Origin: a virus
Reading direction: 5' to 3' (one strand)
IMG/VR virus record: IMGVR_UViG_3300044818_000015
Coordinates: 26,045-90,044 of that record
DNA: 64,000 bases
A model generated the notes under the pieces. The model did not search any database. It was not told the DNA's origin and saw only the letters and a list, made by a program, of their open reading frames with translations. Position numbers and translations under genes: made by a program. This document shows, in pieces, positions 19,301-55,637 of this stretch. The stretch's first letter is position 1, and each line of letters opens with the position of its first letter.

Positions 19301-22300
19301 CGTCATAGTCCAGGCGCACTGCGGCTTTGTGCCGATCGTCAAATAGCCGAATACGATTCGCTCCTGAACGCTTTTCATCCACCTGCATCTTCGGAAAGAA
19401 CTCCGGGAGCTCGGCAAGAATTGCGGTGCGGCCCTTAGCCACCAGCTTGGCGACGCCCTCTCCGTCCTCGAAGTCCTTTTCTGGCGTGCCCGACTTTCCC
19501 CAGATGATGTCCACGTCCCCGAGGCGGGGGTCCGGGTGATATAGTGCCGCTACCGCGTCACCGGTCTCATGTTCGAGGAGCCACGAGATCGCGCCTTTGG
19601 CGTCGTGGTGGAACTGCCGGAGAATCGGCCCGTGCGATCCCATTTCTGGCTGATCTGTCCTCCGCGAGTACTGTGGTTTGTCGTCTTCCTCCAGCAGCGC
19701 CTTCATGCGATCGCGCGCTTCCTTGCCGGCATCGGCGAGCGGATTGGCTTTGGCGGGCGGCGCGGCCTTCTTCGGAGCGGACGGGTGATTTGGCGGGAAT
19801 TTGGATTTCGGGGCGGGGGTTGCCGTGCTTGCGTCAACGGTGACGACCTTGCCGCTGTCTCTCACGGCCAGGGTGAAGGCGGGCTCCTGGTCGCCGTGGT
19901 TGTCGATGCGCAATACCTCGCCAGAATGCGCGGTACCGCCAGGCCCGTTGAAAGTCACCCTTCCGCCGATAGGAAACCGCTTTTCCATGTCGGCCGTAGT
20001 GGCGCGAGCCGTGCCGCGCTTCGCCGCAATTGCGGCAGCCGCGGCGTCGACGGCCTCTTGCTCTTCGTCGGAGATCTCGGGCTCGGCGGGCTTTCCGGAA
20101 GCGAGCGCCTTGAGATCGGAGATCTGGCCCCGGAGAAACTGCTTATTCTCCTCACCAGCCGCCGCGGCGTCTTCCAGAATGGATTCGGCTATGGCGATGT
20201 CACCCCGGATCTCGGCGCGGGCATCCGCCCGGGCTCCAGCCGAATCGGAGCTGAGTGTCAACTCCCACTGCTTTTGTTTCTCGAAGAGGCTGTCGATGAT
20301 ATTGGCGAGCGCTAATTCGGCCTCGTTTTTAGCCCTGTGTTCCTTTTGAAGCTGGTCTTCGAGATTGGCCGTGTGCTTCTTGCTGATAGGGATCTTCTCG
20401 GCGGTGGTCAGGTCTTCCGTCACTGGCGCGGGAGCCACCGGTCCGGTCTTCGGCGCTCCGAACGCCTTGGCGAATTCCTCGACCGGATCCGGTTGCTCGA
20501 AGAACGATTCCGCGGTGGAGCGTTCCACATAGGCGCGGACCATCTTGGCGATCGCGGTGCCGGAATCCTTGCGCAGGATGCCGGCCAGGTGCTCCGCCCG
20601 CGGCGTCGTCTCCGGCCGCTGGCTGCCGAACATCTCGGGCTGGTCCTTGGCAAGCTGGCTGTTGGCGTCGAATCCGTGCGCCTTCTTGTAGTCGGCCTCG
20701 TATTCGATCAGCGCCGTGGCCTGGCGGACGTCGGGTGAAAGCGTCCAATCCGGACGCGCTTCGATGATGCGCAATAGGGGGGCAATGCGCTCCAGTTTGT
20801 TGCGCAGCGCGGGGGCGATGCGCTTAAACTGGTCGCTGTCTTCGAACAGGCTGCCCATCACCAGCTTGGCTACGCGCTCCTTGGCGGCCTTGGTGACCGC
20901 GCCGCTGGTCGAATCGAAAAGGACGGGCCGCTCCTCTTCGGTAAAAATGCCTTCGCTGATGAGCCGGTTGACGATGCTCGGGCCCATCTTCGAGTTCATG
21001 ATGTCGTTGAGCGAATCATCGGGACCGAAGGATTCGAGGACGGAGGCGAGATACTTCGCCAACTCCGGGGTGATGCTGCGGGCGTCTTCCGTTGCCTGTT
21101 CGGCAGTCGAGAGCTTTGCCGTGGGTACTTTGTTGAGGTCGGCGATTGCGCGTTGCTTGTCGATAGTGTCGTCGGCGATAACGCGGAACAGGCCCGGCTT
21201 TTTGAATCCGTCTATCCCGGCGGGATCGATACCGAACATGGGGGCGCGCTTCCTGAGCCGCTCCTGGTACCGCTTGGCAAGTTCAGGAATCTTGTAGGCG
21301 CGCTTCAGGGTGATGAGCCGGTTGTTGCCACCGAGGGCGTTGCCTACGTCCTCAATGACGGAGGGGCCGTTGATCGCGTCGGGGTTGTCATTGATGAGAT
21401 AAGCCTCATCGAAGAAGGCGGGCAGGCTGTTTTGGATCGGACGGGCCCGGTTCAGCTCGTCGCTGTAATCTCGGCCGTTAACGTATGGATAGTCGGGGTC
21501 TTCTTCGAAAGTAAAAGGATCGTGGCTGGGGCGAACGTCGTCTATTTCTCGGATGGAGTAATAGGCTTCGTAGGGGAGGGCTCTTCCCTTGACACGAATT
21601 TGCGTCCGTTCGCCTTTAATCTCTTTTCGGCCTGTTGGAGGCGGTTCAGGAAGCGATTCTCCTTCGTCTCCACGCTGTCCTCGGGCTGAACGTGTTTCAT
21701 CGGATGGCTCCTCTACTATAGGCGTTTTGTCGGCTGGGGGTTTTTCTTGTATTGAACCTTCCTCAGATGTGGCGGTCGGTCCAGCGGCTTCGGTGGTTGT
21801 GGCAGGCCGGATGCGCTCCCAGTAAACGGTGGCTTCAACGTCGTCATCGTCGAATTTGACGCGAATGCCGTCCCGCGTCTTCGTGTTGGCAAAGCGTTTG
21901 AGGTCGACCATTTTGACCACTGCCGGGCGGTCGGGCTTCTCGCCGGGGATGCTTACCAGGACGTGCTGGCCCACCGCGAAATCGTGGATGCCGGCGGGCT
22001 TCTTCAGATCCGGATAGTCGGCCAACACTTCCGGCGGTATGGTCTCGCCAACGTTCATTGCCTTCCGGATCGCGGCCTCATGGCGCCGGGAGAGTTCCGT
22101 TGTCGGGACGCGGGCGGCGCCGTAGCGCTCCGGATCGCGCAATTCTCCTTGAATCATCTGCGCAAAATCGTTGCCGGGGTTGTTGTAGTCGCCGTAGGTA
22201 TCAGCGAGCGCGTTATGGCGCGCAGTCGTATCGCGACTGTGGTTCAGGAGGTCGGCCAGTTCCCGGTAGGGCAACTCCCAGGCGTGTTTGCCCTCGGCGG

Positions 22301-25300
22301 CGGGCTTCTTCTGGCCGCCCCACTCGCGGCCCTTGGCGGATGGCTCAAATTCGGGGATGCCGCCCAGCTCGGCGATGACCGCGGCGTGGTCGATCTTCTT
22401 CGCGGTGGCGCGCTTCCGGAATTCGGCGAGCTTCGCCTGCGCTTCCTCGATTCGCTTGTCGCGATCGCTGATGTTCTCCCACGTCTCCCATTCGTAGCGG
22501 CCCTGGCCGGCGAATTGGGCATCGGCCTCGCGGGCGTGCTTCAGGGAGTCCGCAATTTTCTGGAGAGCGTTGAGCGAGAGCTTGACCGATTGTTTGACGC
22601 GCTCGGGAACTTCTTCGGGCGCGTGCTGTGGCGCTTCGGCGGGAGGCGCATCGCCGGACGCGGGCGCGGGGGTTCCGCGCTTCTTCGCGATCGCCGCGGC
22701 TGCCGCATCGATGGCTTCCTGTTCCTCTTCGGAAACTCCTGCCTCGACGGGCTTCTTGTCTGCCAGCGGGTGTTGCGGGGGAAGCGTCTGCTTCTTCGGC
22801 GGGGCGGGTGGCTTTGGCTTTACGGCGGCCTTCCAGAGGTGATCGTGCGATGGCACCTGAATCACGCCGGGCTTGGCGTCCTTCGCGATGCCTTTGATGC
22901 TGTCTCGGACCGCCACACCACCGGTGCGGATCTCCGCTTCCTTCAGCCCGGTGTGCTGTGCGACGAAATCGACGTACTTCTGATCGTGCTTCGAGGGAGT
23001 CTTCTGAGCTGCAATGTACGCGGCCTTGTCCAGGTCGTTCTCGAATTCCAGGGTGAACTGTTTCGGCCCGTAGCTGTAGCGCGGGGCGGCTCCCTGGAGA
23101 GCATGCGGGAGGATGGCGGGAGTTGCAGATTGTGGCTGTTCAGCCACATTACTTACTTGACTAAGCTCTGGTTTTTCTTCGGGCGCCGGCGTCTCGTTTT
23201 GGAGGGGAGGCACATCGCCGGACGACGGCTGCGCTTCCGCCGCGGGCTTCCCTGTTAGCGGGATTTCGACTATCTTGCCGTCTTTTCCGCTGAACGTGAG
23301 CGAATCGAGGGTGATCGTTCGTCCGGTGACGTTGCGAATGATGCTCCCGTCGTATAACTCGCGGTGTGTCCCTGGCTTCAGGTAGGCGATGGTGACGTGT
23401 GGCTTATAAGTGGGGAATGTGTTGCCGGTGTGGTCGACGGCATCGCCGACCAGCTTATTCAGCTCGTGCAGCTCGGGCGAGTCTACGTCTACCTTGAGGA
23501 CGTCCGGTCCGCCGTCCGTACCCTTAAATATGGAGGTCTTGCCGAAGGTGACGGTGATCGGTCCTTGCCCTTTCAGAATTTCCTGAATCGGAGTGGGGTC
23601 CGCGCTGGGGTTGCCGTATTTGACGGTGACGTGTATTTCCTTCTCGCGGCCGTCGCTGGCGTCGCCTCCGGTTTTCTCCCCTGCTTCAACGTGTAAATGC
23701 TCATCGGGGATGGCGGCGCCGAACTTGCGCACTGCATCCGCGATATCCTCCGGCATGTTGACCTGGGTAGAAGAGTAGTCGTGAGTTTGAGGGGCAGTAT
23801 CATCATTTGATACCGGCGCTGCTTTCTCTTCGGGCGCGGGCTTCGGCTTGCCGGCCGCGGGCCGCGCCATGGCGGCGTCCACGTCGGCACGCAGGGCATT
23901 GTCGAGCGATTCGTATGGTTTACCGTGCCGCGCCATCGCAACGCGATCGCGGGCGATGCTCTCCGGCGTTGCTTCGGGCGCGGCAGCCGCGGGTTTCGGC
24001 GGCACGTCGTCGGCACCGTCATCCGGCTTCGGCGGTTTCGGTGGCACGTCATCCGGCTTCGGTGGTTTCGGCGGAACATCATCGGGCTTTGGCGGTTTCG
24101 GCGGAACGTCCCTCTTGCCGGTCCGTTGGAATTCCTTCTCGAGAATGGAATACGCCGCTTGGTTGCGCCGGAAGATAGCCGGGTCGACGCCGGGGTTTCT
24201 GTCCGGATGGGACGCCATCGCGGCCTTGCGGTACGCGGCGCGCACCTCTTCGAACGTCGCGTTTCGGTCGACGCCTAGAATATCGCGGGCTTGGTCCTGG
24301 GAAAACTCCGGAGATCCGCGGGGCCGTCTCTGTCGCCGGGCGTCATCCTCCTCACGCTGGCGCTTTTGCCGGGCTTCTGATTCCTCACGTTCGCGCTTGA
24401 GTTTGGCTTCATATTCCGCTCGCCTTCGCGCGGAGGCATCTGCGCTTTGGTCCGGAGGTGGCTTCTTGGTGCCATCGCGTGCGGCCGTTGTCTCCTCATA
24501 CATCTGCCACATGCGTTCGTCGGTGTACTGGTGGCCGCTGGCGGGGTCTTCCCACATCCCTTGCGCGTTTTTCTTATAGAGGTTGTCGCGCCATGTCTCG
24601 TAGGGGCCGGGCTTGTAGCCGTCGTCGGGTGGGGGCTTCTTGGGTCCGCCGCCGCCTTCCCGCTTAAACTTCTCAAAGAGGGACTCTTCGTCAAATTCAT
24701 TGCCGTTAGTTCGGTCCTTTGACTGCCAGCGATCTTCGGTACCGTGTTGCTCGTAAAACTTGTCTCGCCACGCATTAAATTCTGGGTCGGGGGCGCCGCC
24801 CCTTTGCTCGCTGCGTCCATGGGTGCCAAAGCGTTGGTTATACTCAGCGTGCAGCGCTTCATCGGTGAAGGTGTTGCCCGCAGTGTCTTCCCAAGTGCCT
24901 TGCGCCGTCTGCTTGTAGTTCTTATTGCGCCAGTCTGAGTAGAAGTTTCTAAATCGGTTGGGGCCCGTGCCGTGGGAGCCAGGGTCGCCGCTATCCGGTG
25001 GGGGCTCGTCAACGATTTTCTCTGCTTCGCCGGGCTTGAACTTGAAATTGAAGATGTCGCCGAGTTTCTTCTCGATGGCGGTAAGCACCTTTTCGCGGTA
25101 TTCCGGACCGGCCGCGTGGACAAAGGGCAACAGGGTCATGGCGGCATGGCCCACCAGGTCGCCGGCCGTGGCTGGCGACGGGTCTTGCTTGAAGCGCTCA
25201 TACACTTCAGGTAGGTCTTTCGCCATAGTGGTGGCGAAATATGCATCGACGCCCGCCCGCACCGAATCCGGTATCCCTGGCAGCCTTAGTCCCGCGATGG

Positions 25301-26948
25301 TCGCCGCGCCCTGCGGCGTGTACAAAAAATCGACGATGCCGGGAATCCCCTTGCTCGCGTGGAAGAGGAATTCCGCCGTCTTGGCTGGCGCCGGCAGCTT
25401 CCCGCGGGTCACGTCCCATGGCTCGCCGAGCGTGCCCTCAATCAGCCTCTTGGCCGACTGCCAGGCAAGGTCCCAGATGTCTGTCAGTGTGCCGCCGCCT
25501 AGCGCTTTAATCGCGTGCGTGGTGGCAATCGTTTTCGCGCCGTCGACTACGGCGCTGGCGCGCTCCTGGATAGTCTTCGGTAGCTGGTTGGGTGGGGGCG
25601 TCGATTGGATGCCCTTCTGGAGATTGGATGCTTCGTCTTCGAGCGCTTGCGCTGTCGAGATATCTTCCTGCCGCAAGGGCCGGGTAGCGCGTAGCTGCGC
25701 GGCTTGCTGCTTCAGTTGATCGATCCGCGCTCCCGCTTCCGCTGGACGGTAGCCAGCCGGGGCGCTCTGCGCGGCCTGGTTCGCCTGCTGGATTTGAAGG
25801 CTCTGGAGTCCCGCCTTCAGCGTCTCGTCCCGCTTGAACGCCTCAACTTGCGCCTTATAGACGCCGATCTCGTCGTTGACCTTCGCTTCGAGCGCCTGCT
25901 GCTCCTGGATCTTAGCGTTGTGCGCGTCAATCTCTCCCTGGTCGATGGCTCCGCTACTGCCCGGGCCCGGCATGGTCCGCATGTCGATCTGCTGGCGCTC
26001 AGCATCGAGCTCCTGCCGCTTCGCGTTGGCGAAGGCAATCAGTTTGTCGACGTTCTGGCCGCGGAGCGTGAGCGTGCCGCGGCTGAGGACTTGGCTCTCA
26101 GGTGCGGCTGGCGCCGCAGTCGTCTCGTCCGGCGGGGATTCCTTTAGATCGTCGTCCAGTTCCTCATCGAGCGTTTTTCTCGTAGGGGGCCGGGGAATGA
26201 CGTTTCCGGCGCTATCGACGGGCGCGGGCTTGCCCTCGTCGTCAACGTACTGGCCGGTTGGCAGGCCTTTTGCCTTGGCTGCCAGTGCTTGCGGAAGATC
26301 GAAGGCGCGATAGGTGTAGCCCGTTTCGTCCGGCGGTCCGACGCTCTTCTCGTCGTAGACGTTGGGCTCGAACAGATGATCAAGGCCATCGGAAACGGCC
26401 GGTGCCGAAGCTGCGGGCTTCGTTGCCGCCGGCGCTGCGCCACCGAACAGATCATCGAGGCCGTCTCCTGCCGGTTTTCCCGCGCTGAAGGGAATTTTGC
26501 TGGTGCCTTCGGCGTGGGATACCGCCTGCGCCAGGTCGTCCAGCCGGTCCTTATAAGTGCCGATCGGCGTAGTAACCGGAACCTTGAGCTTGGATGCAAC
26601 GTTCTTAGCCCAATCCTCCGGCCGGTTGTTCCCGTCGCCCGCTGGCGCCCACACCTTACCCAGATCGAGCAAGGTGCTGTCACCGTTCAGCTTGTGCCGG
26701 GTGTTCCCCGAGATCTTGGCCGATAAGTCAGAGCGCAGAGCTTCCCACCCCGCTTCCGGCGTGTCGTAGCTGCCTATCGAGGTGGGCGTGTCGCGGATGT
26801 TGCCGGGATTGTTCCGGCCCGTAGGCGCAGATATCGCGGGAGCGGTAGGCGCGGTGGCCACCGGGGCAGGATTCGGAGCTGCGGGTTTTGGGAAGAGATC
26901 GTCCAGGCCGTCGCCGGCCTGTTGATCCTCGGGGAGATAGTTTGGCAA
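7323..26948 (-). CDS. Giant 6541-residue polyvalent phage protein (DarB-like methyltransferase-helicase with many modules)
   Basis: Modules seen in order: three DGLDxLF peptides (13-19, 162-168, 187-193) around an NNPGN domain (46 on); coiled coil (about 320-430); J domain with HPD at 914-916; Pro-rich repeats (about 946-985); 2H phosphoesterase with HVT at 1106-1108 and 1184-1186; SH3-like part (about 1653-1716); ParB-like module with GGNNR (about 1780-1960); PBECR-like nuclease (about 2436-2560); N6-adenine methyltransferase (EPSAGNGG 2946, NPPF 3010); Strawberry-notch-type helicase (GDGTGVGK 3356-3363, DESH 3483, QMLGRTHRTNQ near 3881); a conserved phage module with ELQSDWHQ (near 4980); zincin HEKWH 5422-5426; C-terminal segment with a hydrophobic helix near 6200. 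The methyltransferase-helicase order recalls P1 DarB. It is the last gene of the ejection operon, so entry with the DNA is likely but inferred. Start is TTG at 26948, three codons after the upstream in-frame stop, with no nearby Shine-Dalgarno. Confidence 0.9.
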   Translation of the reverse strand: MPNYLPEDQQAGDGLDDLFPKPAAPNPAPVATAPTAPAISAPTGRNNPGNIRDTPTSIGSYDTPEAGWEALRSDLSAKISGNTRHKLNGDSTLLDLGKVWAPAGDGNNRPEDWAKNVASKLKVPVTTPIGTYKDRLDDLAQAVSHAEGTSKIPFSAGKPAGDGLDDLFGGAAPAATKPAASAPAVSDGLDHLFEPNVYDEKSVGPPDETGYTYRAFDLPQALAAKAKGLPTGQYVDDEGKPAPVDSAGNVIPRPPTRKTLDEELDDDLKESPPDETTAAPAAPESQVLSRGTLTLRGQNVDKLIAFANAKRQELDAERQQIDMRTMPGPGSSGAIDQGEIDAHNAKIQEQQALEAKVNDEIGVYKAQVEAFKRDETLKAGLQSLQIQQANQAAQSAPAGYRPAEAGARIDQLKQQAAQLRATRPLRQEDISTAQALEDEASNLQKGIQSTPPPNQLPKTIQERASAVVDGAKTIATTHAIKALGGGTLTDIWDLAWQSAKRLIEGTLGEPWDVTRGKLPAPAKTAEFLFHASKGIPGIVDFLYTPQGAATIAGLRLPGIPDSVRAGVDAYFATTMAKDLPEVYERFKQDPSPATAGDLVGHAAMTLLPFVHAAGPEYREKVLTAIEKKLGDIFNFKFKPGEAEKIVDEPPPDSGDPGSHGTGPNRFRNFYSDWRNKNYKQTAQGTWEDTAGNTFTDEALHAEYNQRFGTHGRSEQRGGAPDPEFNAWRDKFYEQHGTEDRWQSKDRTNGNEFDEESLFEKFKREGGGGPKKPPPDDGYKPGPYETWRDNLYKKNAQGMWEDPASGHQYTDERMWQMYEETTAARDGTKKPPPDQSADASARRRAEYEAKLKREREESEARQKRQREEDDARRQRRPRGSPEFSQDQARDILGVDRNATFEEVRAAYRKAAMASHPDRNPGVDPAIFRRNQAAYSILEKEFQRTGKRDVPPKPPKPDDVPPKPPKPDDVPPKPPKPDDGADDVPPKPAAAAPEATPESIARDRVAMARHGKPYESLDNALRADVDAAMARPAAGKPKPAPEEKAAPVSNDDTAPQTHDYSSTQVNMPEDIADAVRKFGAAIPDEHLHVEAGEKTGGDASDGREKEIHVTVKYGNPSADPTPIQEILKGQGPITVTFGKTSIFKGTDGGPDVLKVDVDSPELHELNKLVGDAVDHTGNTFPTYKPHVTIAYLKPGTHRELYDGSIIRNVTGRTITLDSLTFSGKDGKIVEIPLTGKPAAEAQPSSGDVPPLQNETPAPEEKPELSQVSNVAEQPQSATPAILPHALQGAAPRYSYGPKQFTLEFENDLDKAAYIAAQKTPSKHDQKYVDFVAQHTGLKEAEIRTGGVAVRDSIKGIAKDAKPGVIQVPSHDHLWKAAVKPKPPAPPKKQTLPPQHPLADKKPVEAGVSEEEQEAIDAAAAAIAKKRGTPAPASGDAPPAEAPQHAPEEVPERVKQSVKLSLNALQKIADSLKHAREADAQFAGQGRYEWETWENISDRDKRIEEAQAKLAEFRKRATAKKIDHAAVIAELGGIPEFEPSAKGREWGGQKKPAAEGKHAWELPYRELADLLNHSRDTTARHNALADTYGDYNNPGNDFAQMIQGELRDPERYGAARVPTTELSRRHEAAIRKAMNVGETIPPEVLADYPDLKKPAGIHDFAVGQHVLVSIPGEKPDRPAVVKMVDLKRFANTKTRDGIRVKFDDDDVEATVYWERIRPATTTEAAGPTATSEEGSIQEKPPADKTPIVEEPSDETRSARGQRGDEGESLPEPPPTGRKEIKGERTQIRVKGRALPYEAYYSIREIDDVRPSHDPFTFEEDPDYPYVNGRDYSDELNRARPIQNSLPAFFDEAYLINDNPDAINGPSVIEDVGNALGGNNRLITLKRAYKIPELAKRYQERLRKRAPMFGIDPAGIDGFKKPGLFRVIADDTIDKQRAIADLNKVPTAKLSTAEQATEDARSITPELAKYLASVLESFGPDDSLNDIMNSKMGPSIVNRLISEGIFTEEERPVLFDSTSGAVTKAAKERVAKLVMGSLFEDSDQFKRIAPALRNKLERIAPLLRIIEARPDWTLSPDVRQATALIEYEADYKKAHGFDANSQLAKDQPEMFGSQRPETTPRAEHLAGILRKDSGTAIAKMVRAYVERSTAESFFEQPDPVEEFAKAFGAPKTGPVAPAPVTEDLTTAEKIPISKKHTANLEDQLQKEHRAKNEAELALANIIDSLFEKQKQWELTLSSDSAGARADARAEIRGDIAIAESILEDAAAAGEENKQFLRGQISDLKALASGKPAEPEISDEEQEAVDAAAAAIAAKRGTARATTADMEKRFPIGGRVTFNGPGGTAHSGEVLRIDNHGDQEPAFTLAVRDSGKVVTVDASTATPAPKSKFPPNHPSAPKKAAPPAKANPLADAGKEARDRMKALLEEDDKPQYSRRTDQPEMGSHGPILRQFHHDAKGAISWLLEHETGDAVAALYHPDPRLGDVDIIWGKSGTPEKDFEDGEGVAKLVAKGRTAILAELPEFFPKMQVDEKRSGANRIRLFDDRHKAAVRLDYDGKAKKWLLTVYEDEPPALTTRIRVGEAPKGPGPTPPGTSGQVPLPSGRTTSVPGTPRKGSGETPSPNSGAPDSNIAPEDGEVNSKPDKPQYSRTEGANGTTPPDPRIKQARIDLATVGAEHMLDGVTDEAAWLARMNEDVGPVIQWYAKKTGQTPEDALRQVHRLAVAVAKINGKTVEPMKPPAEKPASGDQQPVQADKPMPVVNKGDVVVFDSPQGIHKGNVVAIYGSSGEIEVRIPATDKPARSVYIKPADIRKINGVSTSAPEPEPAAHPAQALIDAVYDKLKSGGSLGNVVEFNKLAELHLGGSRASGDWTPKDAFDAMEAGINKLLLERGKALMEMDPIAALKDLRELLGRVTTQSVRTDEQLANQQFSTPPTESYVVARVGGILPTDVVLEPSAGNGGIAIWPKAIGAEVHVNEVSERRAQMMELIGFNKPTAHDGELINALLDPAIRPTVVLMNPPFSASAIKSHEATNRAIYGLNHVDQALQRLLPNGRLVVILGGGRADDTNGGANLTTGPSGKWFERIAAQYNVRANIRIAGKEYQKYGTTFSTRIIVIDKNGATPSQVKPGAVKTWDSVLQGNVETLEEAYNLLRDVAADRPQIEPVPRGGNGPRPGKSGTGLGADPGNDDAVPPGVHPGGRGTGRAGKPAGKPGGSGSQHAGVQAGAGDKLPGGVQPGTESAGHPETPAAERPESRPPDSNDERPSTLTLGPNLEEVPQPEAEADNGPFVPYRPSIAGPAHPGDIVETRTMATVKPPPISYKPSLPPSVLENGRLSAVQMEAIAFAGQQNSIVLPGGHYASALIGDGTGVGKGRISAGILWDNYLQGRKRLIWVSEKWDLMDAAIHDFRNIGADALTRGISIEDGKNVMGENPAVQAFSKFGYGKKIEHDGVLFSTYALLTGKNKTGQRRIDQMEAYLRGDDDGEGAYILWDESHNLKSAVAAQGGSESQRGVAAKELLARMPKLRTVSLSATAATDVINLGYLDRLGQWGPGTAFPQGFGEFQSQIGPGGIAAMELIARSLKAQGKYLARTLSYKGVTYETETHKLSKEQKDLYRTATQAWASVIQHAEATIANTTNGGRQQRGNFMSAFGGAQQRFFGLLITALKTPTAVELANKALAEGKSVVITLVNTNEAAQNREKAKQRDEDEDPDDLPEYDFGPKEALVNMVLTSYPTQQYADDVDSSGNPIKVPVYRNDEQGRKIPVVNPAAVEARDALIAKLNRDLHMPENPLDILINSLGGDKHVAEITGRKEKYDRSIGKFVPRGDPKASKKEINLFEMRAFQGGKKRVAVLSSAGGTGISLHAGNDVANQQKRYHITLQTGWSADKAQQMLGRTHRTNQKQPPEYVFLISDLAGEQRFVSTIQRRLGSLGALTKGQKNAAAGSAMGENANIETEQGRAATNSFYTQLLRNQPVPGTGLSGLQVLTDLRVIKLGSSGPEIPPADMTNVTKLLNRLMALDPDIQNATYRYFFNIFNAAVEQAIAAGTLDTGVKTLPGDEIEVKEQRLLAKDPKTGAETYYYPVDAKNKTERVSPEELDERLLQHEKRHAAIARNEKGVLYLVIDAPPTVHADGNVEPSSYTAKPERGRWLKVTQAELRGKGLKEVDTWAKEELSKAQDALKGAERDLERDQAQLKRDEDNNRTSRVRDAESDLSYAQGRADEAAAPDFEYFARTRREEALERAKTALAKAKAYEMPADSWQRKRVDASTKEVEAQRAPLAAAEAIAKDPQQWAKDIWKERYDAAPTHTTTHHHLIGGEVMRFWNPIRDAAFIRNSIYTTADSKTAERVVGIDIPESRIRALLDRISGGKSTVDAKQLHDDVLRNNLTYTLEGNTQVRRGIIGRIQVIQLFPPNQDVARNLLTLGALSEKGITPVYYIPRKYDGDGPNTTGAILDRILEAYPVKPDEAPPDAPQFSRQAPEVLARYTNHEDGLESVVTRHPNGYAVTLRDLDAEQTLPTVTIYPTLERARAKAHEIAGQASLVDRVAEASSQAETQSAADRLLGAQLTAQVKSGMAARPAKLKPAKDRGSDSLFGDQGQEPEQAPLFSRQPKAADKPQYSRVLQDPRARLTDQLRSAKALMERATIPGERAAAAAAVKRLEQSLAELSPAAAQTGQQRAEKVIASRAEFNNAQHRRVDEFVKERDRAFQAFQKSQADRPFDDDSTAAAQAFYEADAAAWKAFHAEQAERFKDTPQYSRKTPGFYSQLERAIAAKMKGPAVPGQLLAMLRNPQSGVKADELKWTGLDTWLEERKGPVTREQVLAFVKANEVQVEEVVKGGGAELEPTAWKEELPDWIADTPEGRYTITPNKGYDGFSLTSTHGSLGEFDSIAAAKDAVEAERIEIDLDQGPARESVAKYGGYVTPGGENYRELLLTLPGAKSETYTDANGMERTRQTAGTYRSSHWSEPNVLAHVRFGDRWTSADGTPYTPPEKILHVYELQSDWHQEGKKKGYQGGQWDALRNQAEAYLNSVDLGLSPYTFGWLFERPGDTNAQASKAAQASKAKRLEALREHFGEEWIDKANTLSTVHKNDSGVPPAPFAKTWHELAFKRMLRYAAENGYDRLAWDTGETHADRYDLSQQLESIWAKPAKGGTFDLTVDAKGGETIYDTGRTGPVTAEGLEDIVGKEMAQRIVAGEGEKSDFGDPAARTFTGLDLKVGGEGMKGFYDKILVDYAKKYGKKWDAKVGTTQINKPSIAGDLFIDEQDGGAAGQMFSVLDSQDTLSEPVREFETRAQAEAFVARVATDNPGALQPLHSIDITPAMVDSVMQGQPLFARTPDGETSDPGALRITVQPGKLITNQANVTAIGQVWGDPALDGMRLHPRHVVRAVKALMPTHPALALALEKAGANEQSVLLVNGSAGLQRAAATLRHEKWHLSIDQLEGHLGEHEQELLDHPFAQDAAVQLRLKGYPENEIAAEIGTHLVGGQYEELGLTRPQAVELGTHYFTLLTKQHGAKAVEQAITNLAPMMKEAVLRAGINAETERRSGTPQGELPQGADSGETGPQSSRGSHGGNHAAGGSRGQAALLLQDGPAFARRRKALNEPASYQSKTGALKNKLVRNLSQLEKVSHPAHAAAVQTATSRAQTVALMRAAAPRVEAALGKNGPSWLNFRRSLIESRLRGLRGRWDNMAEGAAQSTNDDLPAFLASVMHALQAIHEESIGVPIQSPALTAAALLERGDMDGLRAFLVDTFERAAARVARMMPETEYQDITQHAGFAGGLKVYKTLVEDAVRENHEENEGVLSNALGPLDTYYPLVRLDEEQPNAKGRWGRAVPYRKPPNIANYFATGHGEFYDAGMEALADRLRQAFRANNKGALIQALEDNKLGRKLGRGESLPDSIAIRSKDYKAVKVEVKPDRQIVTPGQGSVFVPAQHMVTAAWLEEELRPILDKNNLNLSDPASLIGKITQFTLAGPLDAVIHSANLIGTLVANTPFLGTSLAGKIAGGNPFTKRAAAIFHLINTNPTTEESVQDIIDMAKLGVVPEKYGSMASSWFKKSREYAAQMGADVEPTLGGEIKRALRETAEDFAAMVLRQPGPAKRDVEASLGFGPFLYGPKGIDIRARLVMYRAAKALYPQATTKDLYLVVNQLGNYTRALQGSIERAAKESGWSPFYTAGSTMARNGVNAWTGRGPMPKGGAGLRALQAITGGAVGLIALWIAMHEAMRGDPPWKDPHSKLLAVRLTDKQRATWLAQQLWGPPSNGDAYIDIGFFSPLVKRGARALGISGAFDAYKAGGSTDQLMDAAVAGAFNAAAHPLLGPPFSAAWVGLSGTEPYVTGWRDDRGKFNPQLMKAVETQKPGMAGWAKAHALAPLVTMNGFLENVGEATGLTKGLMPHGDDPANHWLRMAVDLATPQLFSRPGDALNHAEFLARQRSSAANADRVKVKNQITSLVRDDKIDEANELIGKQIAAGVISPNDVKLALKRAKVPKNVAGFESLDMMSALDIMDITTPEERILFTPILNKKIRTAWPKLPLNQQQEVIEQMNRLSGQ
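10172..10372 (-). CDS. Overprinted small gene inside the giant gene, after the zincin module
   Basis: GTG start, 66 residues, PELTPKQNEDLERLKANYRK and onward, ending KTDRPLPGAAKP; helical and natural in composition. It lies in the +1 frame relative to the giant gene. By hand count, 50 of 66 codons end in G or C in this frame against 28 of 65 in the giant frame, whose product here is low-complexity (Gly, Ser, Gln). This suggests the small frame is, or was until recently, the selected one, located exactly between two giant-protein modules. A -1/+1 frameshift connection is the alternative. Confidence 0.5.
   Translation of the reverse strand: MPELTPKQNEDLERLKANYRKGLTAARQGPKALAEAMEEIMPPEDPEDKPHFFYKTDRPLPGAAKP
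17165..17512 (-). CDS. Overprinted 115-residue gene between methyltransferase and helicase modules
   Basis: ATG at 17512, MSQPIARKSSLSREAVMALG, then a helical protein with AWAQILAMMMQCRQEYTRAA and NLPESLEDLVVSM, ending NDRLLSH. About 80% of its codons end in G or C. The giant frame over the same bases gives a Gly/Pro/Ser-rich linker with no fold. It is in the same +1 frame as the nested gene at 10172. The start falls just after the last protein-like residues of the methyltransferase module. Function unknown. Confidence 0.55.
   Translation of the reverse strand: MSQPIARKSSLSREAVMALGPVSPELAWAQILAMMMQCRQEYTRAAEELAERANLPESLEDLVVSMREFKPVLAINYLVESNPELSLRDIPKLPPLNVLKAVLRTQMTNDRLLSH
24000..24110 (-). 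repeat. 30-bp tandem repeats coding DVPPKPPKPD
   Basis: Three near-identical 30-base units plus a diverged fourth encode DVPPKPPKPD repeats just after the J domain of the giant protein. They form a stiff Pro/Lys/Asp linker. Copy-number change is likely between relatives. Confidence 0.75.
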
Positions 26949-49315: not shown

Positions 49316-51559
49316 TTACCATCCCTCCTTTATGACCTTCCAAACGATTGGGGTGTAGGCTTGCGTACCAGACCCGACAGCGAGAGTCAGTCCAAGTTTC
49401 AATGTGGTCAGCGTTGCGTCCTGATTGCCTGTGCTTGCGTGAGCATACCCCCCGGCCCCCTGTTGGTAATCGGTCCAGTCTACTATCGTTTGCGCATTTT
49501 GAACCCCGTTGTTATTGCATACATGGGCCGTAAACTTTTGGGGATTGGTGGCCGACGGGGTGAACCCGGCTACTGGCTGCACTGTGTCGCTGCTGCCAGT
49601 GGTACCGGGAGCAGTTCCGTACCAGACTTTGGCGGTTGTCGCGGTAGATCCGCTCGGCACAAGAACTACAGCTTCAATACCCCAGCATTTACCAGATGGC
49701 AATGCCGGCAGGGTAGGCGTAACAAATACTACCGTATCGCTCGTACCGACCGTGACATTAGAGAGCATGTACTGCTCATTCTGGGGAGAGCCACCAGCAG
49801 CAGCTTGCCAAGTTGCCGCACTACTGCTGGTGGCCGTGGGCACATATCCAGTCGAAGGGGTCCCGGTAACGGCGATTCCGTTTATCTTCACTACGGTGAC
49901 GGCGTTGCTTCCGCTGGTGGTGGCATCTCCACTCAGTTCCGCGTTTGACGGCGTGGTGCCGTTGCTGCGAAAGAGTCCCGCCGCGCCCGCCAGCCTCGTC
50001 GGCACACCGGAAGCCCCGCCGTAGATCGTGTCGCCTGCCGTGGTCATCGGGTTGGCCGTGCCGCCGCCCGATCCGATCTCAATCTGCCCGGTGAACGCCG
50101 GGAGAAACGTGAAGACCAGATCGCCTGACGTGTTGCGGGTGTAATCGCAGGCGTTCGCGACTCGCGGGGTCGCGCTGCTAAAACAGTAGGCCACGGCAAG
50201 CGTCCCCTGCCCGTGAGTTGCGGCGGAAATTGAGACGGAGGTTTGCGCGGTGACCGTGGTGGTATATGGAGCAACGGCGGTACCGCCCCCTCCCGCTGGC
50301 GTTGTCCATGTACCGGTGCCATTTAGGAACTCCGTGACGGTGTTCGACAGCTTGGGGGCGAATCCGTGCTTTGTGGTGCTGGCATTGTTGGTCGTGATAT
50401 CGGACGTTGAAAGATCAGCATCCGTGGGCTGCGCCGTGGCCGGAATGCCCGTCGCCGCCACATGGGTAACAAACTGGTTGGCCGTCCGGCTGGCGGCCGT
50501 CAGCACCGTGGCGTACACGTTGCCCGATGAGTCCAGGCAGAGTTCCGTGTTCGCTACGGAGCTGTAATAGCAGGTGACATTACCCGAGGTGGGATTCAAC
50601 GGTGCCGTGCCGGTCGCGCCAGTCACCACGTAAGTGCCGGTGTTGGTGGTGGAGAGCAGCTTCTTCCAGGTATTTGTCGCCACGCAGGCCCAGACGTCCT
50701 GGGTTACGGTCTGGGTGTAAAGAGCCAGGACGGTGGTGCTCGGCGCGCCGCAAGCCGCCACGGGGTCCGATGCGCCCGTGGCCATCGTGGTGATGCCGCT
50801 GCCGCTGCTTGAAACCTGCCGGAAATTGGTGCCGTCGTACTGAAACGAGTAGGCCGAGCCTCCGGTTAAGGCGCTCGCCGCTACATTGGTGGATCCGTCC
50901 GACTGCTTCAGGGTCTTGGCGCCCAGGCTGAAGACGTTCAGGGTGGACGTGCCGCTATTGGTTGTCTGTGGAACGAACGAGACGACGAGTCCGGTCAACG
51001 TGCTCACGGCCGGCGTCGGAGATGGGCAGGTATAGGTGGTCGTGCTGCCGGTGGCGTCCGCGCAGTAGGCGTTATTGCCGGTGCCTGGAGTCCCTGTCGC
51101 GCCGGTTGCCCCGGTCGCGCCCGCTGCCCCTGTGGCCCCGGTCGCGCCCGCTGCCCCTGTGGCTCCGGTCGCGCCCGCTGCGCCCGTGGATCCTGTCGCG
51201 CCCGTCGCGCCCGATGCGCCGATCGGGCCAGCTCCGCCCGTCCCGTTTACCGCACAACTGATGTTAGCCGTGCTTGCAAAGTTCAGCGTGATGCTGGTGG
51301 TTGTCAGGCCGCTGATGCTGCTCACGGCAACCGGGGTGCGCGCCGTGCCGGTGCCGGTCCAGCATTGATATTCGACCGCATCGGCGGACGTCAGATTGAG
51401 CGCCGTCAGGTCGACCGTCAGGGTAGTGACTGCGCCGGCCGACGACGCGGTTGGATTGGTTGCGCCTACGCCGCCGCCCGCGCTGCTGCCGCTGCCGGGC
51501 CTCGGATATTGTGCCAGCGCGAGCGCCGGGATGAGTATGAGTAGTGCGAGGCGCTTCAT
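49316..51559 (-). CDS. Collagen-like fibre protein with signal peptide
   Basis: 747 residues. Signal MKRLALLILIPALALA then QYPRPGSG. Residues about 106-160 are an unbroken collagen-type Gly-X-Y run made of Gly-Ala-Thr, Gly-Ala-Ala and Gly-Ser-Thr triplets. It is followed by beta-rich domains with SNTVTEFLNGTGTWTTPAGG and a repeat-like FRSNGTTPSNAELSGDAT, typical of phage fibres. Collagen runs in phages form trimeric stalks. The start shares bases with the stop of the next gene (TAATG). A fibre role is likely; secretion is inferred from the signal. Confidence 0.7.
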   Translation of the reverse strand: MKRLALLILIPALALAQYPRPGSGSSAGGGVGATNPTASSAGAVTTLTVDLTALNLTSADAVEYQCWTGTGTARTPVAVSSISGLTTTSITLNFASTANISCAVNGTGGAGPIGASGATGATGSTGAAGATGATGAAGATGATGAAGATGATGATGTPGTGNNAYCADATGSTTTYTCPSPTPAVSTLTGLVVSFVPQTTNSGTSTLNVFSLGAKTLKQSDGSTNVAASALTGGSAYSFQYDGTNFRQVSSSGSGITTMATGASDPVAACGAPSTTVLALYTQTVTQDVWACVATNTWKKLLSTTNTGTYVVTGATGTAPLNPTSGNVTCYYSSVANTELCLDSSGNVYATVLTAASRTANQFVTHVAATGIPATAQPTDADLSTSDITTNNASTTKHGFAPKLSNTVTEFLNGTGTWTTPAGGGGTAVAPYTTTVTAQTSVSISAATHGQGTLAVAYCFSSATPRVANACDYTRNTSGDLVFTFLPAFTGQIEIGSGGGTANPMTTAGDTIYGGASGVPTRLAGAAGLFRSNGTTPSNAELSGDATTSGSNAVTVVKINGIAVTGTPSTGYVPTATSSSAATWQAAAGGSPQNEQYMLSNVTVGTSDTVVFVTPTLPALPSGKCWGIEAVVLVPSGSTATTAKVWYGTAPGTTGSSDTVQPVAGFTPSATNPQKFTAHVCNNNGVQNAQTIVDWTDYQQGAGGYAHASTGNQDATLTTLKLGLTLAVGSGTQAYTPIVWKVIKEGW

Positions 51560-52035
51560 TACCGTTCACTCCAGAACAGGGCAATATTCGTTGTGCCGGT
51601 AATGCTCGAGACCACAAAGGTGTAATTGGTGGCCGTGCCGGTGTTGCCCATCCGGACCCCGCCGAGCTCGATCGTCACCCGCTCCCCGGCCGCCAGGTGC
51701 AGGATTCCGCCTGCCGCCGTGCCGTTGCCGACGTTGCTCGCGGTCCACACCGTGGCCTGCGCGGGGGCTCCGAAGGGCAGCAGGGCGCGAGTGGTGCCCG
51801 CGGTCGTGGTGGCCGCGGCGCCGTTCTGAGACATCGTAAAGTCGCAGGCCACTGAGCAGTACACAACGGCAGCAATGAGCTGCACCTGGTTCGCGTTCGA
51901 TGCCGGCTGCTGGATGGTGAACTTGGTCCCAGCGCCGGATAGAACCACATCCCCGGTTGTGGCGGAATAGTTTTGGGCGGCGGCGGAGCCGGCCAGAAAC
52001 AACACATAGAGAAGGAGCAGAGTTAGGGATTTCAT
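51559..52035 (-). CDS. Small signal-bearing beta protein
   Basis: 158 residues. Signal MKSLTLLLLYVLFLAGSAAA then QNYSATT. The rest is a single beta-rich domain with two cysteines (YCSVACDFTM) and a FVVSSITGTTNIALFWSER end, like a fibre tip or receptor-binding domain. First gene on the transcript of the signal-bearing block. No family recognised. Confidence 0.55.
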   Translation of the reverse strand: MKSLTLLLLYVLFLAGSAAAQNYSATTGDVVLSGAGTKFTIQQPASNANQVQLIAAVVYCSVACDFTMSQNGAAATTTAGTTRALLPFGAPAQATVWTASNVGNGTAAGGILHLAAGERVTIELGGVRMGNTGTATNYTFVVSSITGTTNIALFWSER

Positions 52036-52096
52036 CGGTGGGCTACCTTTGTACTGGTAGGCTCAAGTTGCGTTTGAACCTAGTAAACGTTGGGGT

Positions 52097-52119
52097 TTGA
52101 GCACATACTGAATGCTCAA
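52097..52119 (+). promoter_or_regulatory. Inverted repeat at the start of the GIY-YIG gene
   Basis: TTGAGCA at 52097-52103 and TGCTCAA at 52113-52119 form a perfect 7-bp palindrome with 9-base spacer, ending one base before the proposed GTG start. A fold in the mRNA, or a bound regulator, could limit expression. Confidence 0.4.
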
Positions 52120-53298
52120 GTGAATTGGATTATCTATACGCTAAGCTGCCCGCGCACTAAGGCGGTTCGGTATGTGGGATGGACGCGGCAGAGCGCCGAA
52201 GCTCGGCTGAACGCTCATATTTACGATTCCCTGGAATCGCACAGAACACACAAGCAGCGATGGATTTGCTCTCTGGTAGCCATCGGATTGCGTCCTACCG
52301 CCGAAACGATTGAATCCGGTTCCGGCGAGGGCTGGCAGGACGCGGAGCGGCGCTGGATTGCTTGCTATAGAGCCAATGGTGCGCGCCTGGTCAATGGCAC
52401 GGACGGTGGCGACGGCATTGTCGGATGGGGTACTCCGGAGTTGCGAAGCGCGTCCGCGAAGGCGAGGGCCGCACGCACCACACCAGAGCAATGGGCTGCG
52501 ATGACCGAAAAGCGGATGATGAAAAGTACGCCCGAAGAGCGCAGTGCGTCCGCGAAACGGGGAAGTGCTACGCTTACGCCCGAGCAGCGCAGCGCAAGGT
52601 CCAGAAAGGGACAGGACAGCTTCACGCCAGAGGAGCGAAGCGCGAGAGCCAGGCACGCCCACGCGAATTCTACCCATGAGGAACGCAGCCAAAGAGCCAA
52701 GGAGATTCAGGCGCGGTTTACTCATGAGGAACGGAGCGCGAGGTCGGTAGCGGCGCATGCAAGGCGGAGCCCCGAACAGAGACGGGCGATAGCGGCCAAA
52801 ATATCGGCGAGTAAGACTCCAGAGCAGCGTAAAGAGATCGGCGCGAAGATGGTTGCCGCTAAGACGCCCGAGCAGCGTAGTGAGGCGAGCAGGAAAGCGG
52901 CAAGAACAATGGGACCAGAACGGCGGAGCGCAGTCGCACGTAAACGCTGGGCCAGCTTCACTCCAGAGCAGCGGAGCAGCATGCCGAAATCGGGCGTCGG
53001 CGCCATGACGTTTGAGCAACGGAGCGCTGCATCGAAAAAGCGGGTAGCCAATTCGACTCCCGAAGCTAGAAGCGCCGCCGGCAAAAAGGGCTTCGCGGGA
53101 ATGACGCTTGAACAACGAACAGCCAGGGCGGTAAAGCGGGCTATGTCTATGGATCACGAAAGACTTGCCGCCGCCGCACGCAAGCGCCAGGCCGCTAAGA
53201 CTCCTGCGCAGCGTAGCGAGTCGGCTCACAAGGCTTGGGCGAGCAAGCGCGCGCAGTCGCTTGCTGCGGATAACAATGCGCGTCACTTGGGCGCCTGA
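52120..53298 (+). CDS. GIY-YIG homing-endonuclease-like protein with a 17-unit helical repeat array
   Basis: 392 residues if started at GTG 52120; a TTG at 52090 is also open. The catalytic part is IYTLSCP ... RYVGWT (GIY-YIG variant), an Arg nearby, then a Glu-containing GEGWQDAERRWIACYR and Asn-Gly (VNGTDGG). From 52432 to 53247 come 17 tandem units of exactly 16 residues, consensus TPEQRSAxARKxxxxx. This resembles NUMOD3-type DNA-binding units, normally few in number. The gene runs against its neighbours and overlaps the portal 3' end by 16 bases: a free-standing selfish gene by appearance. Confidence 0.75.
   Translation: MNWIIYTLSCPRTKAVRYVGWTRQSAEARLNAHIYDSLESHRTHKQRWICSLVAIGLRPTAETIESGSGEGWQDAERRWIACYRANGARLVNGTDGGDGIVGWGTPELRSASAKARAARTTPEQWAAMTEKRMMKSTPEERSASAKRGSATLTPEQRSARSRKGQDSFTPEERSARARHAHANSTHEERSQRAKEIQARFTHEERSARSVAAHARRSPEQRRAIAAKISASKTPEQRKEIGAKMVAAKTPEQRSEASRKAARTMGPERRSAVARKRWASFTPEQRSSMPKSGVGAMTFEQRSAASKKRVANSTPEARSAAGKKGFAGMTLEQRTARAVKRAMSMDHERLAAAARKRQAAKTPAQRSESAHKAWASKRAQSLAADNNARHLGA
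52432..53247 (+). repeat. 17 tandem 48-bp coding units (16 residues each)
   Basis: Units start TPELRSAS, TPEQWAAM, TPEERSAS, TPEQRSAR and so on to TPAQRSES, without any length change. The first six positions (T-P-E-Q-R-S) are the most conserved; the last five vary between units, as in modular recognition repeats. Confidence 0.85.
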
Positions 53299-55637
53299 CC
53301 CTTCGGCGTCGCCGTGGGCTTCGCCTTCGCGGCCTGGATGGCGGCAACCTGGGCCTGTGTGGCCTGCGCGGCGGTGGCCTCCTGGGCGGAATCCTGCTGG
53401 GCGGCAGAGGCCTCGCGGTCTTGGGTAGCCTGATCGGCTTGGTGCTCTTGATCCGCCGCTGCCATTCCCTGCTGATGCGCCTGATCCTGCGCCTGCATCT
53501 GCTGCTCGTGTTGACGGTCCTGCTCGGCTCCGGCGGCATCCTGTTCGACGGAAATTGAGGCGTGGAGCAGCTCGTGACGTAAATCCAACTGGTGGGCCAC
53601 GGCGTCATGGTCAAGTTTTGCCAAAACGTTCATCGAGCCGGCTTTTGAGAGCGTTTCCGCGGCCTGGATCCGCGCGCGGTTGTTCTCATTGGCGATGCGT
53701 TCGGCGGACTCTACCTTTTCACGGTTGATCTTCTCGGCGCTCTCGGCCTTGGCCTGCGCTTCTACAAGCCGCTGCTTGACCATGGATATAAGCTGTTGAT
53801 TGGCCTCGGTGAGTTGGTCTATCTGCGCCTTCTGCTGCGCCATCTGGCTTTGAAGTTGGGGCGGAATTTCCGGGTCGCCTTCCTCGGCTTGCAACATTGC
53901 CGGTGGGAGGGCGCTGTGAAATCTTTTTGCGAGGCGGTCCGCTCCGACGAAATCGGAATTTTCAAAGAATACGTCGGCTGCGAGGCTCCAGATTTCTGGA
54001 TTACCTTGAGCCAGCGACATCAGTAGTTCCCTGGTTTCAGATCGCTGAGAATCGTACGAAATTCCCTGCGAGACCGTGACGTCATACTTGCCCTGGTCTA
54101 GCTTGTGGTGCTGGGGCTTACCGGTCTCCGCGTCCACGTAGGGCGCGTTGACCATAACGATGTTCTGTTTCTTGTCGTCGCCGATGACTCGGACTTCCCG
54201 CGCCGTATCGTACTTTTTCGGAATCAGCTCCACCAGGATTCGCCCGCCGCGCTTGAGCGCGCGCGCCAGGTTGTCCATGAAATGGAAGTTGGAGATGTCG
54301 CCCTTGGCCTGCAGCCTCTGGATGGCGATGCCCGACTGGTCCCGCGGGTTCTTTCCGAGCTGCGCATCGGCATAGCCTGTCGAATCCTTGATATCGTCGG
54401 CCGCCGCCGCTGCTCCGATCGCGAGCGCCTGCACCGGCGGATCGAACACTTCCCACCTGGGCGGGCCCAGTAGCTTGTCTCCCACCGCCACGGGGTCGTA
54501 TTCGAGGAACGCGGCGTTGTCGGTATTGGCCCGCTGCCAGTCTTTGCGCTTGCTCTTGAACTGCCCGAGGCCGCCGACCCACTTCGGTTTCGGCGCCAGG
54601 CTGATGGTTTCGGCCTCCATCGTCTTGTAGTAGTTGAGGAGTTGCTGCGGATCGCGGGCGAAGCGCGTCATCGAAAAAATCTTCTTTTTGCCGCGAACCG
54701 TCATCTCGAGGCCGGTCACCATCACGATGGGGATGGTGGTGCCGTCCCACTCGGCGGGCTCCTCGAGCACCGCCGCGCCGTTGATGATGTACTGCATGAC
54801 GGTCGGGATTTCCTTGGTGCTCTCCCGGGGCTTGCCGTCTTTCCCGAGTTCCCACTCCAGGCCTTCCTCTTCGCCTTCCTCCAGGTCTTCGAGGTACACC
54901 GGGTGGACCGTGCCGTCTGCGTCCTTGCGCATCCGCAGGGTTTTCTTGACGGTGGTGATCTCCCAATACTCGGCTACCCGCTTGCCGTCGTCGTCGAGCC
55001 AGCCTTCCTGGGTGAGCTCGCGAAGGAAGTCGGCCGAGAGGTCCGCCTGGTCCTTGCCGAAGCGGTCCTCGTGGGCCTCGTTCGATAGCTTGGCCAGCCG
55101 GAACGCCCATTTCATGTCGGAGCGATCAGGCTTGCGCGCATAACAATCGACGTAGATCGAGAAGGGATCGTCGATGGTGATGGTCTTCAGGTCCTGGTTG
55201 AAGCTGAGGGGGTCGGATTCCTCACAGCCGTACATCCAGAAGCCGAAGCTGCAGCCCGCGGCGTAGAACAGGGCGGTATCATAAGCCTGGTCCGCGTCCG
55301 AGTCATATTCGATATGCCGGACCATGCCCTGCAGCACCTTGGCTGTTTCCGGATCCCCGGCCGAGTCCACCGGGGATACTTTGATCGCGGGCTTGTTCTG
55401 GCGCGCCTGGTTGCCCAACTGGGTGACTGGCGGCAGGACTTTATTGAAAACGAGACAGGGCCGCGGGGATGGTCCGTTTTCGCGGTCATGCTTGACCCTT
55501 TCGTCCCACTGGTCCCCCGATAAAAAAAGTAAATCCTGGAGGGCCTCTTTTCTAATGTCCGTCTCTGCTTCCACAGCCTGGGCGAACCTCTTGCGTGCGC
55601 GTTCGAGGAGACCCTTGTACTGTTCTTGCGGAGGCAT
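53283..55637 (-). CDS. Portal protein, P22-type
   Basis: 784 residues, close to the 725 of P22 gp1 plus an extension. Landmarks: FLSGDQWDERVKHDRENGPS, CLVFNKVLPPVTQLGNQARQ, NKPAIKVSPVD and the EYDSDADQAYDTALFYAAGC segment with DDPFSIYVDCYARKPDRSDM. From about residue 600 the chain becomes a long helix rich in Gln, Ala and Glu (the barrel), ending Ala/Gln/Lys-rich. Downstream of terminase by several small genes; the opposing GIY-YIG gene overlaps its 3' end. Confidence 0.8.
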   Translation of the reverse strand: MPPQEQYKGLLERARKRFAQAVEAETDIRKEALQDLLFLSGDQWDERVKHDRENGPSPRPCLVFNKVLPPVTQLGNQARQNKPAIKVSPVDSAGDPETAKVLQGMVRHIEYDSDADQAYDTALFYAAGCSFGFWMYGCEESDPLSFNQDLKTITIDDPFSIYVDCYARKPDRSDMKWAFRLAKLSNEAHEDRFGKDQADLSADFLRELTQEGWLDDDGKRVAEYWEITTVKKTLRMRKDADGTVHPVYLEDLEEGEEEGLEWELGKDGKPRESTKEIPTVMQYIINGAAVLEEPAEWDGTTIPIVMVTGLEMTVRGKKKIFSMTRFARDPQQLLNYYKTMEAETISLAPKPKWVGGLGQFKSKRKDWQRANTDNAAFLEYDPVAVGDKLLGPPRWEVFDPPVQALAIGAAAAADDIKDSTGYADAQLGKNPRDQSGIAIQRLQAKGDISNFHFMDNLARALKRGGRILVELIPKKYDTAREVRVIGDDKKQNIVMVNAPYVDAETGKPQHHKLDQGKYDVTVSQGISYDSQRSETRELLMSLAQGNPEIWSLAADVFFENSDFVGADRLAKRFHSALPPAMLQAEEGDPEIPPQLQSQMAQQKAQIDQLTEANQQLISMVKQRLVEAQAKAESAEKINREKVESAERIANENNRARIQAAETLSKAGSMNVLAKLDHDAVAHQLDLRHELLHASISVEQDAAGAEQDRQHEQQMQAQDQAHQQGMAAADQEHQADQATQDREASAAQQDSAQEATAAQATQAQVAAIQAAKAKPTATPKGQAPK

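What the first reader, a model, noticed from the sequence alone, without database searches (positions are those of the whole stretch)
52120..53298. GIY-YIG nuclease with 17 exact 16-residue repeats
NUMOD3-type units usually appear in small numbers after a GIY-YIG domain. Here 17 units follow without a single length change, with a constant TPEQRS head and variable tail. This could be a modular DNA reader with one or a few bases per unit, somewhat like TAL repeats. The gene sits opposite to the portal gene, between two virion gene blocks.
Basis: partly seen in the sequence, partly recalled or inferred. Interest (0 to 1): 0.82.

Follow-up and report, generated by a model that had tools for sequence, protein, structure and literature searches.

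The report
Phage nuclease with long helix array
A phage carries, tail-to-tail with its portal gene, what is probably a selfish DNA-cutting gene whose likely DNA-binding part is a string of 17 equal 16-residue helices; related arrays sit on several other phage nucleases, and whether the helices read DNA by a simple rule is an open, testable question.

Summary
In detail: ORF 52120-53298 (+) encodes a GIY-YIG nuclease head followed by 17 units of exactly 16 residues (lag-16 similarity 1.66; shuffle maximum 0.34). AlphaFold2 gives an I-TevI-like head and one 13-14-residue helix in nearly every unit; array charge is +36. Most likely it is a free-standing homing endonuclease. It lies antisense at the portal gene's 3' end; a relative phage lacks it there, and its GC3 is lower than its neighbours'. 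Seven heads with this unit form one clade (99/95), sister to canonical NUMOD3-type genes; two other members also sit antisense at portal 3' ends and one at a coat gene's. The same unit follows other GIY-type heads in cyanophage-like genomes, where kin carry canonical NUMOD3 instead. Pfam NUMOD3 never matches these units, so NUMOD3 membership is unproven. Seventeen is the longest exact run found (next 13), but not unique in kind. The TAL-like code is not supported as stated: one helix per unit and diffuse variation, although column 13 is recurrently the most variable. DNA binding and cutting are untested. New variant of a known kind.

The parts
52120..53298 (+). GIY-YIG endonuclease gene with repeat array (392 aa; alternative TTG start at 52090 gives 402 aa)
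   Evidence: homologous starts MNWIIY/MDWVIY in L016 and L134 favour 52120
52120..52431 (+). GIY-YIG catalytic head, residues 1-104, with Y6, Y18, G20, R29, H33, E76 and N92 in place
   Evidence: alignments A1 and A4; Foldseek match to I-TevI catalytic domain 1ln0_B, TM-score 0.73 by target, rmsd 3.1
52432..53247 (+). array of 17 exact 16-residue (48-bp) units, consensus TPEQRSAxAxKxxAxx, net charge +36, predicted one helix per unit in nearly all units
53248..53298 (+). C-terminal tail of 16 residues and stop codon; the last 16 nt overlap the 3' end of the portal gene
52036..53282 (.). segment between the portal gene and the next gene (1247 bp), absent from relative L008, where the portal stop overlaps the next start (ATGA)
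   Evidence: exact junctions cannot be fixed because the portal 3' ends have diverged
53283..55637 (-). P22-like portal protein gene, convergent with the nuclease gene
   Evidence: Pfam P22_portal E=4e-149, phrog_156
51559..52035 (-). 158-aa gene on the other side of the nuclease gene; its ortholog directly abuts the portal gene in L008

Best explanation
It is a free-standing phage homing endonuclease. [quoted passage not shown] the 17-helix basic array is a NUMOD3-like DNA-binding region that holds the enzyme on a long target, probably by laying successive short helices along DNA. In mixed infections it would cut genomes that lack it near the portal gene and be copied in by break repair. Shown by sequence or model: the intact catalytic head, the array, absence from a relative, the antisense tail-to-tail position on head genes, and the clade. 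Inferred: DNA binding, cutting, the target and mobility.
For: Catalytic residues conserved across relatives and I-TevI-like fold. One helix of 13-14 residues in nearly every unit, mean pLDDT 89, array charge +36. Relative L008, portal 67% identical, lacks the gene. GC3 0.64 against 0.72-0.81 in six other phage genes of the window. No Rfam match at 51400-53700, so no sign of an intron. Heads of seven such genes form one clade (99/95), sister to L017 and L022 (L022 passes Pfam NUMOD3). Antisense at portal 3' ends also in L016 and L134, portals 30-35% identical to each other and to the window's, and at the 3' end of a coat gene in L122. Two other GIY-type heads carry either this unit (L137; L120, S-PM2p181) or, in S-SRM01 kin, canonical NUMOD3 (Pfam E=3e-7 and 7e-7) at the same place. 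Precedent: free-standing T4 seg enzymes home, and T4 segD lies antisense between capsid genes (PMC2988022).
Against: No binding or cutting was tested and no homing site was identified. pTM is 0.38, so the layout of the helices is unknown, and helices are easily predicted for such sequences. Pfam NUMOD3 does not match. The gene-less relative differs at the portal 3' end, so precise insertion cannot be shown. A simple scan found no promoter for the antisense gene.
Confidence: 0.75

Rival explanations
1. A modular DNA reader of TAL type: each 16-residue helix reads one or a few bases through a hypervariable residue (position 13, perhaps 12-13), so the order of units spells the target.
For: Column 13 is the (co-)most variable column in 8 of 12 arrays; a column shuffle reached this 5 times in 20000. 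In L137, near-identical units differ most at codons 12-13. Unit order is not collinear between window and relatives though heads are up to 68% identical, as target switching would give.
Against: In the window's array columns 8-16 nearly all vary and units share 39% identity on average. One helix per unit, unlike TAL. Several of the 12 arrays are related, so they are not independent. No target or DNA-bound model.
Confidence: 0.1
2. The array is a mostly non-specific basic tether that raises DNA affinity or processivity; specificity lies in the head and the first few units, and unit number drifts freely.
For: Unit number varies from 6 to 17 among close relatives, with irregular spacing in L097, L112 and L125. 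Net charge is spread evenly, +1 to +4 per unit.
Against: Exact spacing over 17 old units (third-position identity 34%) with conserved E3, R5, K11 and A14 implies selection for unit form.
Confidence: 0.3
3. Decayed or domesticated element: the gene no longer homes and persists because its 3' end overlaps the portal coding end.
For: Antisense with no recognisable promoter; overlap with the portal end. T4 segD is a comparable case thought to be poorly expressed (PMC2988022).
Against: Intact frame over 392 codons with all catalytic residues; in the more distant pairs L105/L111 dN 0.13 against dS 2.2 (saturated) and L020/L021 dN 0.010 against dS 0.056, so this kind of gene is under purifying selection elsewhere.
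Confidence: 0.15

Closest known systems
I-TevI and the NUMOD-bearing 'orthodox' GIY-YIG homing endonucleases (PMC1564403)
   Same: N-terminal GIY-YIG head with the same catalytic residues and fold; C-terminal extended DNA-binding region made of small modules; phage location, also noted near portal genes
   Different: [quoted passage not shown] here there are 17 equal single-helix units and nothing else
NUMOD3 (PF07460)
   Same: Tandem short units starting S/T-x-E-x-R/K directly behind a GIY-YIG head; the two kinds of unit replace each other behind the same heads in cyanophage-type genes
   Different: Pfam NUMOD3 gives no match; canonical units carry K7-[IML]8-S9 and often G14, with irregular spacing in the sample (17 the commonest); here A/E7, variable 8, K11, A14 and strict 16
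T4 free-standing Seg endonucleases, especially segD (PMC2988022)
   Same: Free-standing GIY-YIG gene; segD is antisense between essential capsid genes
   Different: Here the gene overlaps the portal 3' end and carries a long regular array; the review describes no such array
S-PM2p181 of cyanophage S-PM2 (next to F-CphI) and arrays L104, L115, L120, L135, L137
   Same: Same TPEQRS 16-residue unit behind another GIY-type head
   Different: Different heads and an added C-terminal domain (WQCxETGFI...RGID); about 4 to 13 units
TAL effector repeats
   Same: Long tandem array with exact unit length and a recurrently variable residue
   Different: Unit of 16 against about 34 residues, one helix against two, diffuse variation, no known code

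Membership tests
GIY-YIG nuclease superfamily | GIY...YIG motifs with catalytic Y, R, E and N | tested here: met
   IIY/YVG, R29, E76, N92 invariant in 34-sequence alignment
GIY-YIG nuclease superfamily | Fold of the I-TevI catalytic domain | tested here: met
   1ln0_B, TM-score 0.73 by target length, Foldseek prob 1.00, though E=0.055 for the whole query; profile hit to 1mk0 E=0.0024
GIY-YIG nuclease superfamily | Passes the Pfam GIY-YIG model (PF01541); a sensitivity check, not a defining feature | tested here: not met
   Window protein not matched at E<=10; clade member L125 passes with E=1.5e-7, so this looks like a sensitivity limit
NUMOD3 (PF07460) | Passes Pfam gathering score | tested here: not met
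   No match in window, L016, L112, L125, L134, L122, L135, L137, L120, S-PM2p181
NUMOD3 (PF07460) | Unit profile similar to canonical NUMOD3 beyond chance | tested here: inconclusive
   Single-unit hhalign aligns columns 1-9 in register, score 9.53; 3 of 200 column-shuffled controls reach it; tandem-pair test no better than control
NUMOD3 (PF07460) | Same position behind homologous heads | tested here: met
   Sister clade L017/L022 (L022 NUMOD3); S-SRM01 gp075 and gp030. Positional evidence, not proof of homology
Free-standing homing endonuclease | Gene present in one phage and absent at the same site in a relative | tested here: met
   L008; exact junctions not resolvable
Free-standing homing endonuclease | Not inside a self-splicing intron or intein | tested here: met
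   Intergenic; no Rfam match at 51400-53700
Free-standing homing endonuclease | Site-specific cutting of the gene-less allele and super-Mendelian inheritance | not testable with these tools
   Needs protein and phage crosses
TAL-type modular DNA reader | Repeat of two helices, about 33-35 residues | tested here: not met
   One helix per 16 residues; lag-32 similarity equals lag-16
TAL-type modular DNA reader | Variation confined to one or two positions per unit | tested here: not met
   Columns 8-16 nearly all vary in the window's array; column 13 (co-)most variable in 8 of 12 arrays
TAL-type modular DNA reader | One-to-one code with bases | not testable with these tools
   No target known

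The most novel reading that the evidence does not exclude
The 16-residue TPEQRS unit is an undescribed, interchangeable DNA-reading module, shuffled among different phage nuclease heads, in which a hypervariable residue at position 13 sets local DNA preference and unit number sets target length; the window's 17-unit array is the longest exact example found.
Probability: 0.1. Interest if true: 0.88.

Novelty: new variant of a known kind. Interest (0 to 1): 0.5.

Why it matters
GIY-YIG homing endonucleases are known to use small DNA-binding modules, but the well-studied ones use a few different modules each. A strictly periodic array of up to 17 single helices of identical length, on at least three different GIY-type heads in viral sequences, is a natural series for asking whether short helices can be strung together to read long DNA, and whether a per-unit rule exists. 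Natural variants with 6, 7, 10, 13 and 17 units make footprint length against unit number directly testable. The recurring antisense seat at the 3' end of portal or coat genes adds a second question: why these elements favour essential head genes.

Tried and rejected
Whole-protein search of viral contigs and two genome-contig scans found no relatives; the genome scans used only two short peptide patterns each, so absence from bacterial genomes is weak evidence. Five-sequence alignment A1 was too diverse to search with. PDB hit HeliScrew4 (9zem, E=1e-7) has a TPEQ-like motif about every 8 residues, a period not seen here; judged low-complexity convergence; no paper on it was held. Pfam hits such as RPAP1_N, HC2 and STPRs on the arrays look compositional and were rejected. 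The opposite-strand ORF 52141-53286 was rejected as the gene because all homology is on +. Tandem-pair hhalign of these units against canonical NUMOD3 was no better than control. Foldseek found no PDB match for the array. About half of the 40 pattern hits were Pro-rich or other chance matches. The label 'cyanophage-like' for L104, L115, L120, L135 and L137 rests on similarity to Synechococcus phages, not on host data. The window's host was not identified (no tRNA). 'TPEQRS' and tandem NUMOD arrays gave no relevant paper in the library held.

Full report
OBSERVATION. The window is positions 26045-90044 of a 90,044-base virus record. The ORF 52120-53298 (+) is intact and encodes 392 residues from GTG (402 from TTG 52090). 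Residues 105-376 form 17 consecutive units of exactly 16 residues. The periodicity is far beyond chance: lag-16 mean BLOSUM62 score 1.66 against at most 0.34 for any lag from 5 to 39 in 2000 shuffles. Conservation within the unit is T1 14/17, P2 12/17, E3 16/17, R5 15/17, K11 11/17, A14 12/17. Conserved residues use many synonymous codons (third-position identity 34% between units, DNA identity 47%), so the units are old and were kept at the amino-acid level, not made by recent duplication. The array's net charge is +36.

HEAD. All aligned relatives share Y6, Y18, G20, R29, E76 and N92 (window numbering), the catalytic set known for GIY-YIG nucleases. The model of the whole protein (34-sequence alignment, mean pLDDT 89, pTM 0.38) has a head that matches the I-TevI catalytic domain (1ln0_B, TM-score 0.73 by target, rmsd 3.1). 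The Foldseek E-value for the whole query is 0.055; the array has no counterpart among solved structures. Pfam does not call GIY-YIG in the window protein, but does in its clade member L125 (E=1.5e-7).

ARRAY. The model gives one helix of 13-14 residues in nearly every unit, broken around residues 16 and 1. Unit 12 (with P9) is short and low in confidence, and the last units merge into longer helices. An independent array behind a different head (L137) gives the same pattern at lower confidence (mean pLDDT 68). The low pTM means that the helices' layout in space is not determined.

RELATIVES AND UNIT NUMBERS. A pattern for three exact consecutive units retrieved 40 stretches of viral contigs, about half of them real arrays. 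By a profile parse the longest exact runs are: window 17, L137 13, L120 10, L104 8, L134 7, L135 7, L016 6, L139 6. L125 (13 units) and L112 (11) contain length changes. So the window's array is the longest exact run in this sample, but the kind is not unique. The search may leave out records very near the window's own genome.

PHYLOGENY. In a tree of 69 heads, the seven with this unit (window, L016, L097, L112, L122, L125, L134) form one clade (99/95), whose sister is L017+L022; L022 passes Pfam NUMOD3. Columns are few, so many other forks are open. The closest head, L112, is 68% identical, yet best unit matches between the window and its relatives are not collinear: the arrays turn over faster than the heads.

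ONE UNIT, SEVERAL HEADS. In cyanophage-like contigs the unit follows two other GIY-type heads: YYIGKG (L115, L135, L137) and GRGYIG (L104, L120, and S-PM2p181, which lies between the homing endonuclease gene F-CphI and psbD in phage S-PM2). Both groups share a C-terminal domain. Kin of both heads in phage S-SRM01 carry canonical NUMOD3 instead (Pfam E=3e-7 and 7e-7). That the heads are GIY-type rests on their motifs; the L137 model has a low-confidence head. This interchange, plus the S/T-x-E-x-R start, suggests that the unit is a NUMOD3 derivative or a functional replacement. Direct profile tests are inconclusive.

LOCATION. The gene is convergent with the P22-like portal gene and overlaps its 3' end by 16 nt. 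The same seat is occupied in L016 (stops 8 bp apart) and L134 (56-nt overlap), in phages whose portals are 30-35% identical to each other and to the window's. In L122 the gene overlaps the 3' end of a coat gene, and in L112 that of a gene resembling a DNA-ejection protein. The more distant L020, L105 and L111 genes (related but less regular repeats) follow a portal gene of another family in the sense direction. GIY-YIG genes near portal genes were noted before (PMC1564403), and T4 segD is antisense between capsid genes (PMC2988022). Relative L008 (portal 67% identical) has no insertion: its portal stop overlaps the start of the next gene, whose product is 74% identical to the window's 158-aa protein over residues 23-157. 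L006 has a DNA-methyltransferase-like frame after the portal instead (my reading of the sequence, not a family match). GC3 of the nuclease gene is 0.64 against 0.72-0.81 for six other phage genes. The insertion point cannot be fixed because portal 3' ends diverge.

MECHANISM. Shown: an intact catalytic head, a periodic basic array that is helical by prediction, absence from a relative, repeated seats on head-gene 3' ends, and clade structure. Inferred: the array binds DNA, the enzyme cuts gene-less genomes, and repair copies the gene. For free-standing phage homing endonucleases the cut can lie hundreds of bases or more from the gene (PMC2988022), so the target may be in the portal gene or beyond.

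TAL IDEA. Against: one helix per unit, no 32-residue period, variation over columns 8-16, units 39% identical on average. For: column 13 is the (co-)most variable in 8 of 12 arrays, with 5 of 20000 column shuffles as extreme, though several arrays are related and not independent. In L137 near-identical units differ most at codons 12-13, with no silent changes there. This is a lead, not evidence of a code.

VERDICT. Most likely a free-standing GIY-YIG homing endonuclease of known kind, with an unusually long and regular array of NUMOD3-like helices: a new variant of a known kind.

Noticed in passing
window 7323-26948 (-): One 6541-residue ORF with strawberry-notch helicase (AAA_34 E=1e-83, Helicase_C_4 E=2e-77), DnaJ, 2H phosphoesterase/Acb1-like, ddrB-ParB and weak PBECR1 matches: a giant polyvalent phage protein that may include an anti-CBASS-like domain.
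   Followed up: partly
L006:12150-13700: A DNA-methyltransferase-like reading frame sits right after the portal gene, where the window has the nuclease; the spot looks like a variable site.
   Followed up: no
window 51559-52035 and L006:4944-5432: The 158-aa gene beside the insertion is found before the portal in L006 but after it in L008, so it moves within the head-gene block.
   Followed up: no
L140:1516-2145 (S-PM2p181, NC_006820.1): The uncharacterised gene between F-CphI and psbD in cyanophage S-PM2 is a GIY-type head with about four TPEQRS units; it could be a second homing endonuclease beside a known one.
   Followed up: partly
L139:5285-6040 (-): A six-unit TPEQRS array behind a cysteine-containing, non-GIY head.
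   Followed up: no
window 49316-51559 (-): Collagen-like repeat protein with a signal-like N-terminus, probably a tail fibre.
   Followed up: no
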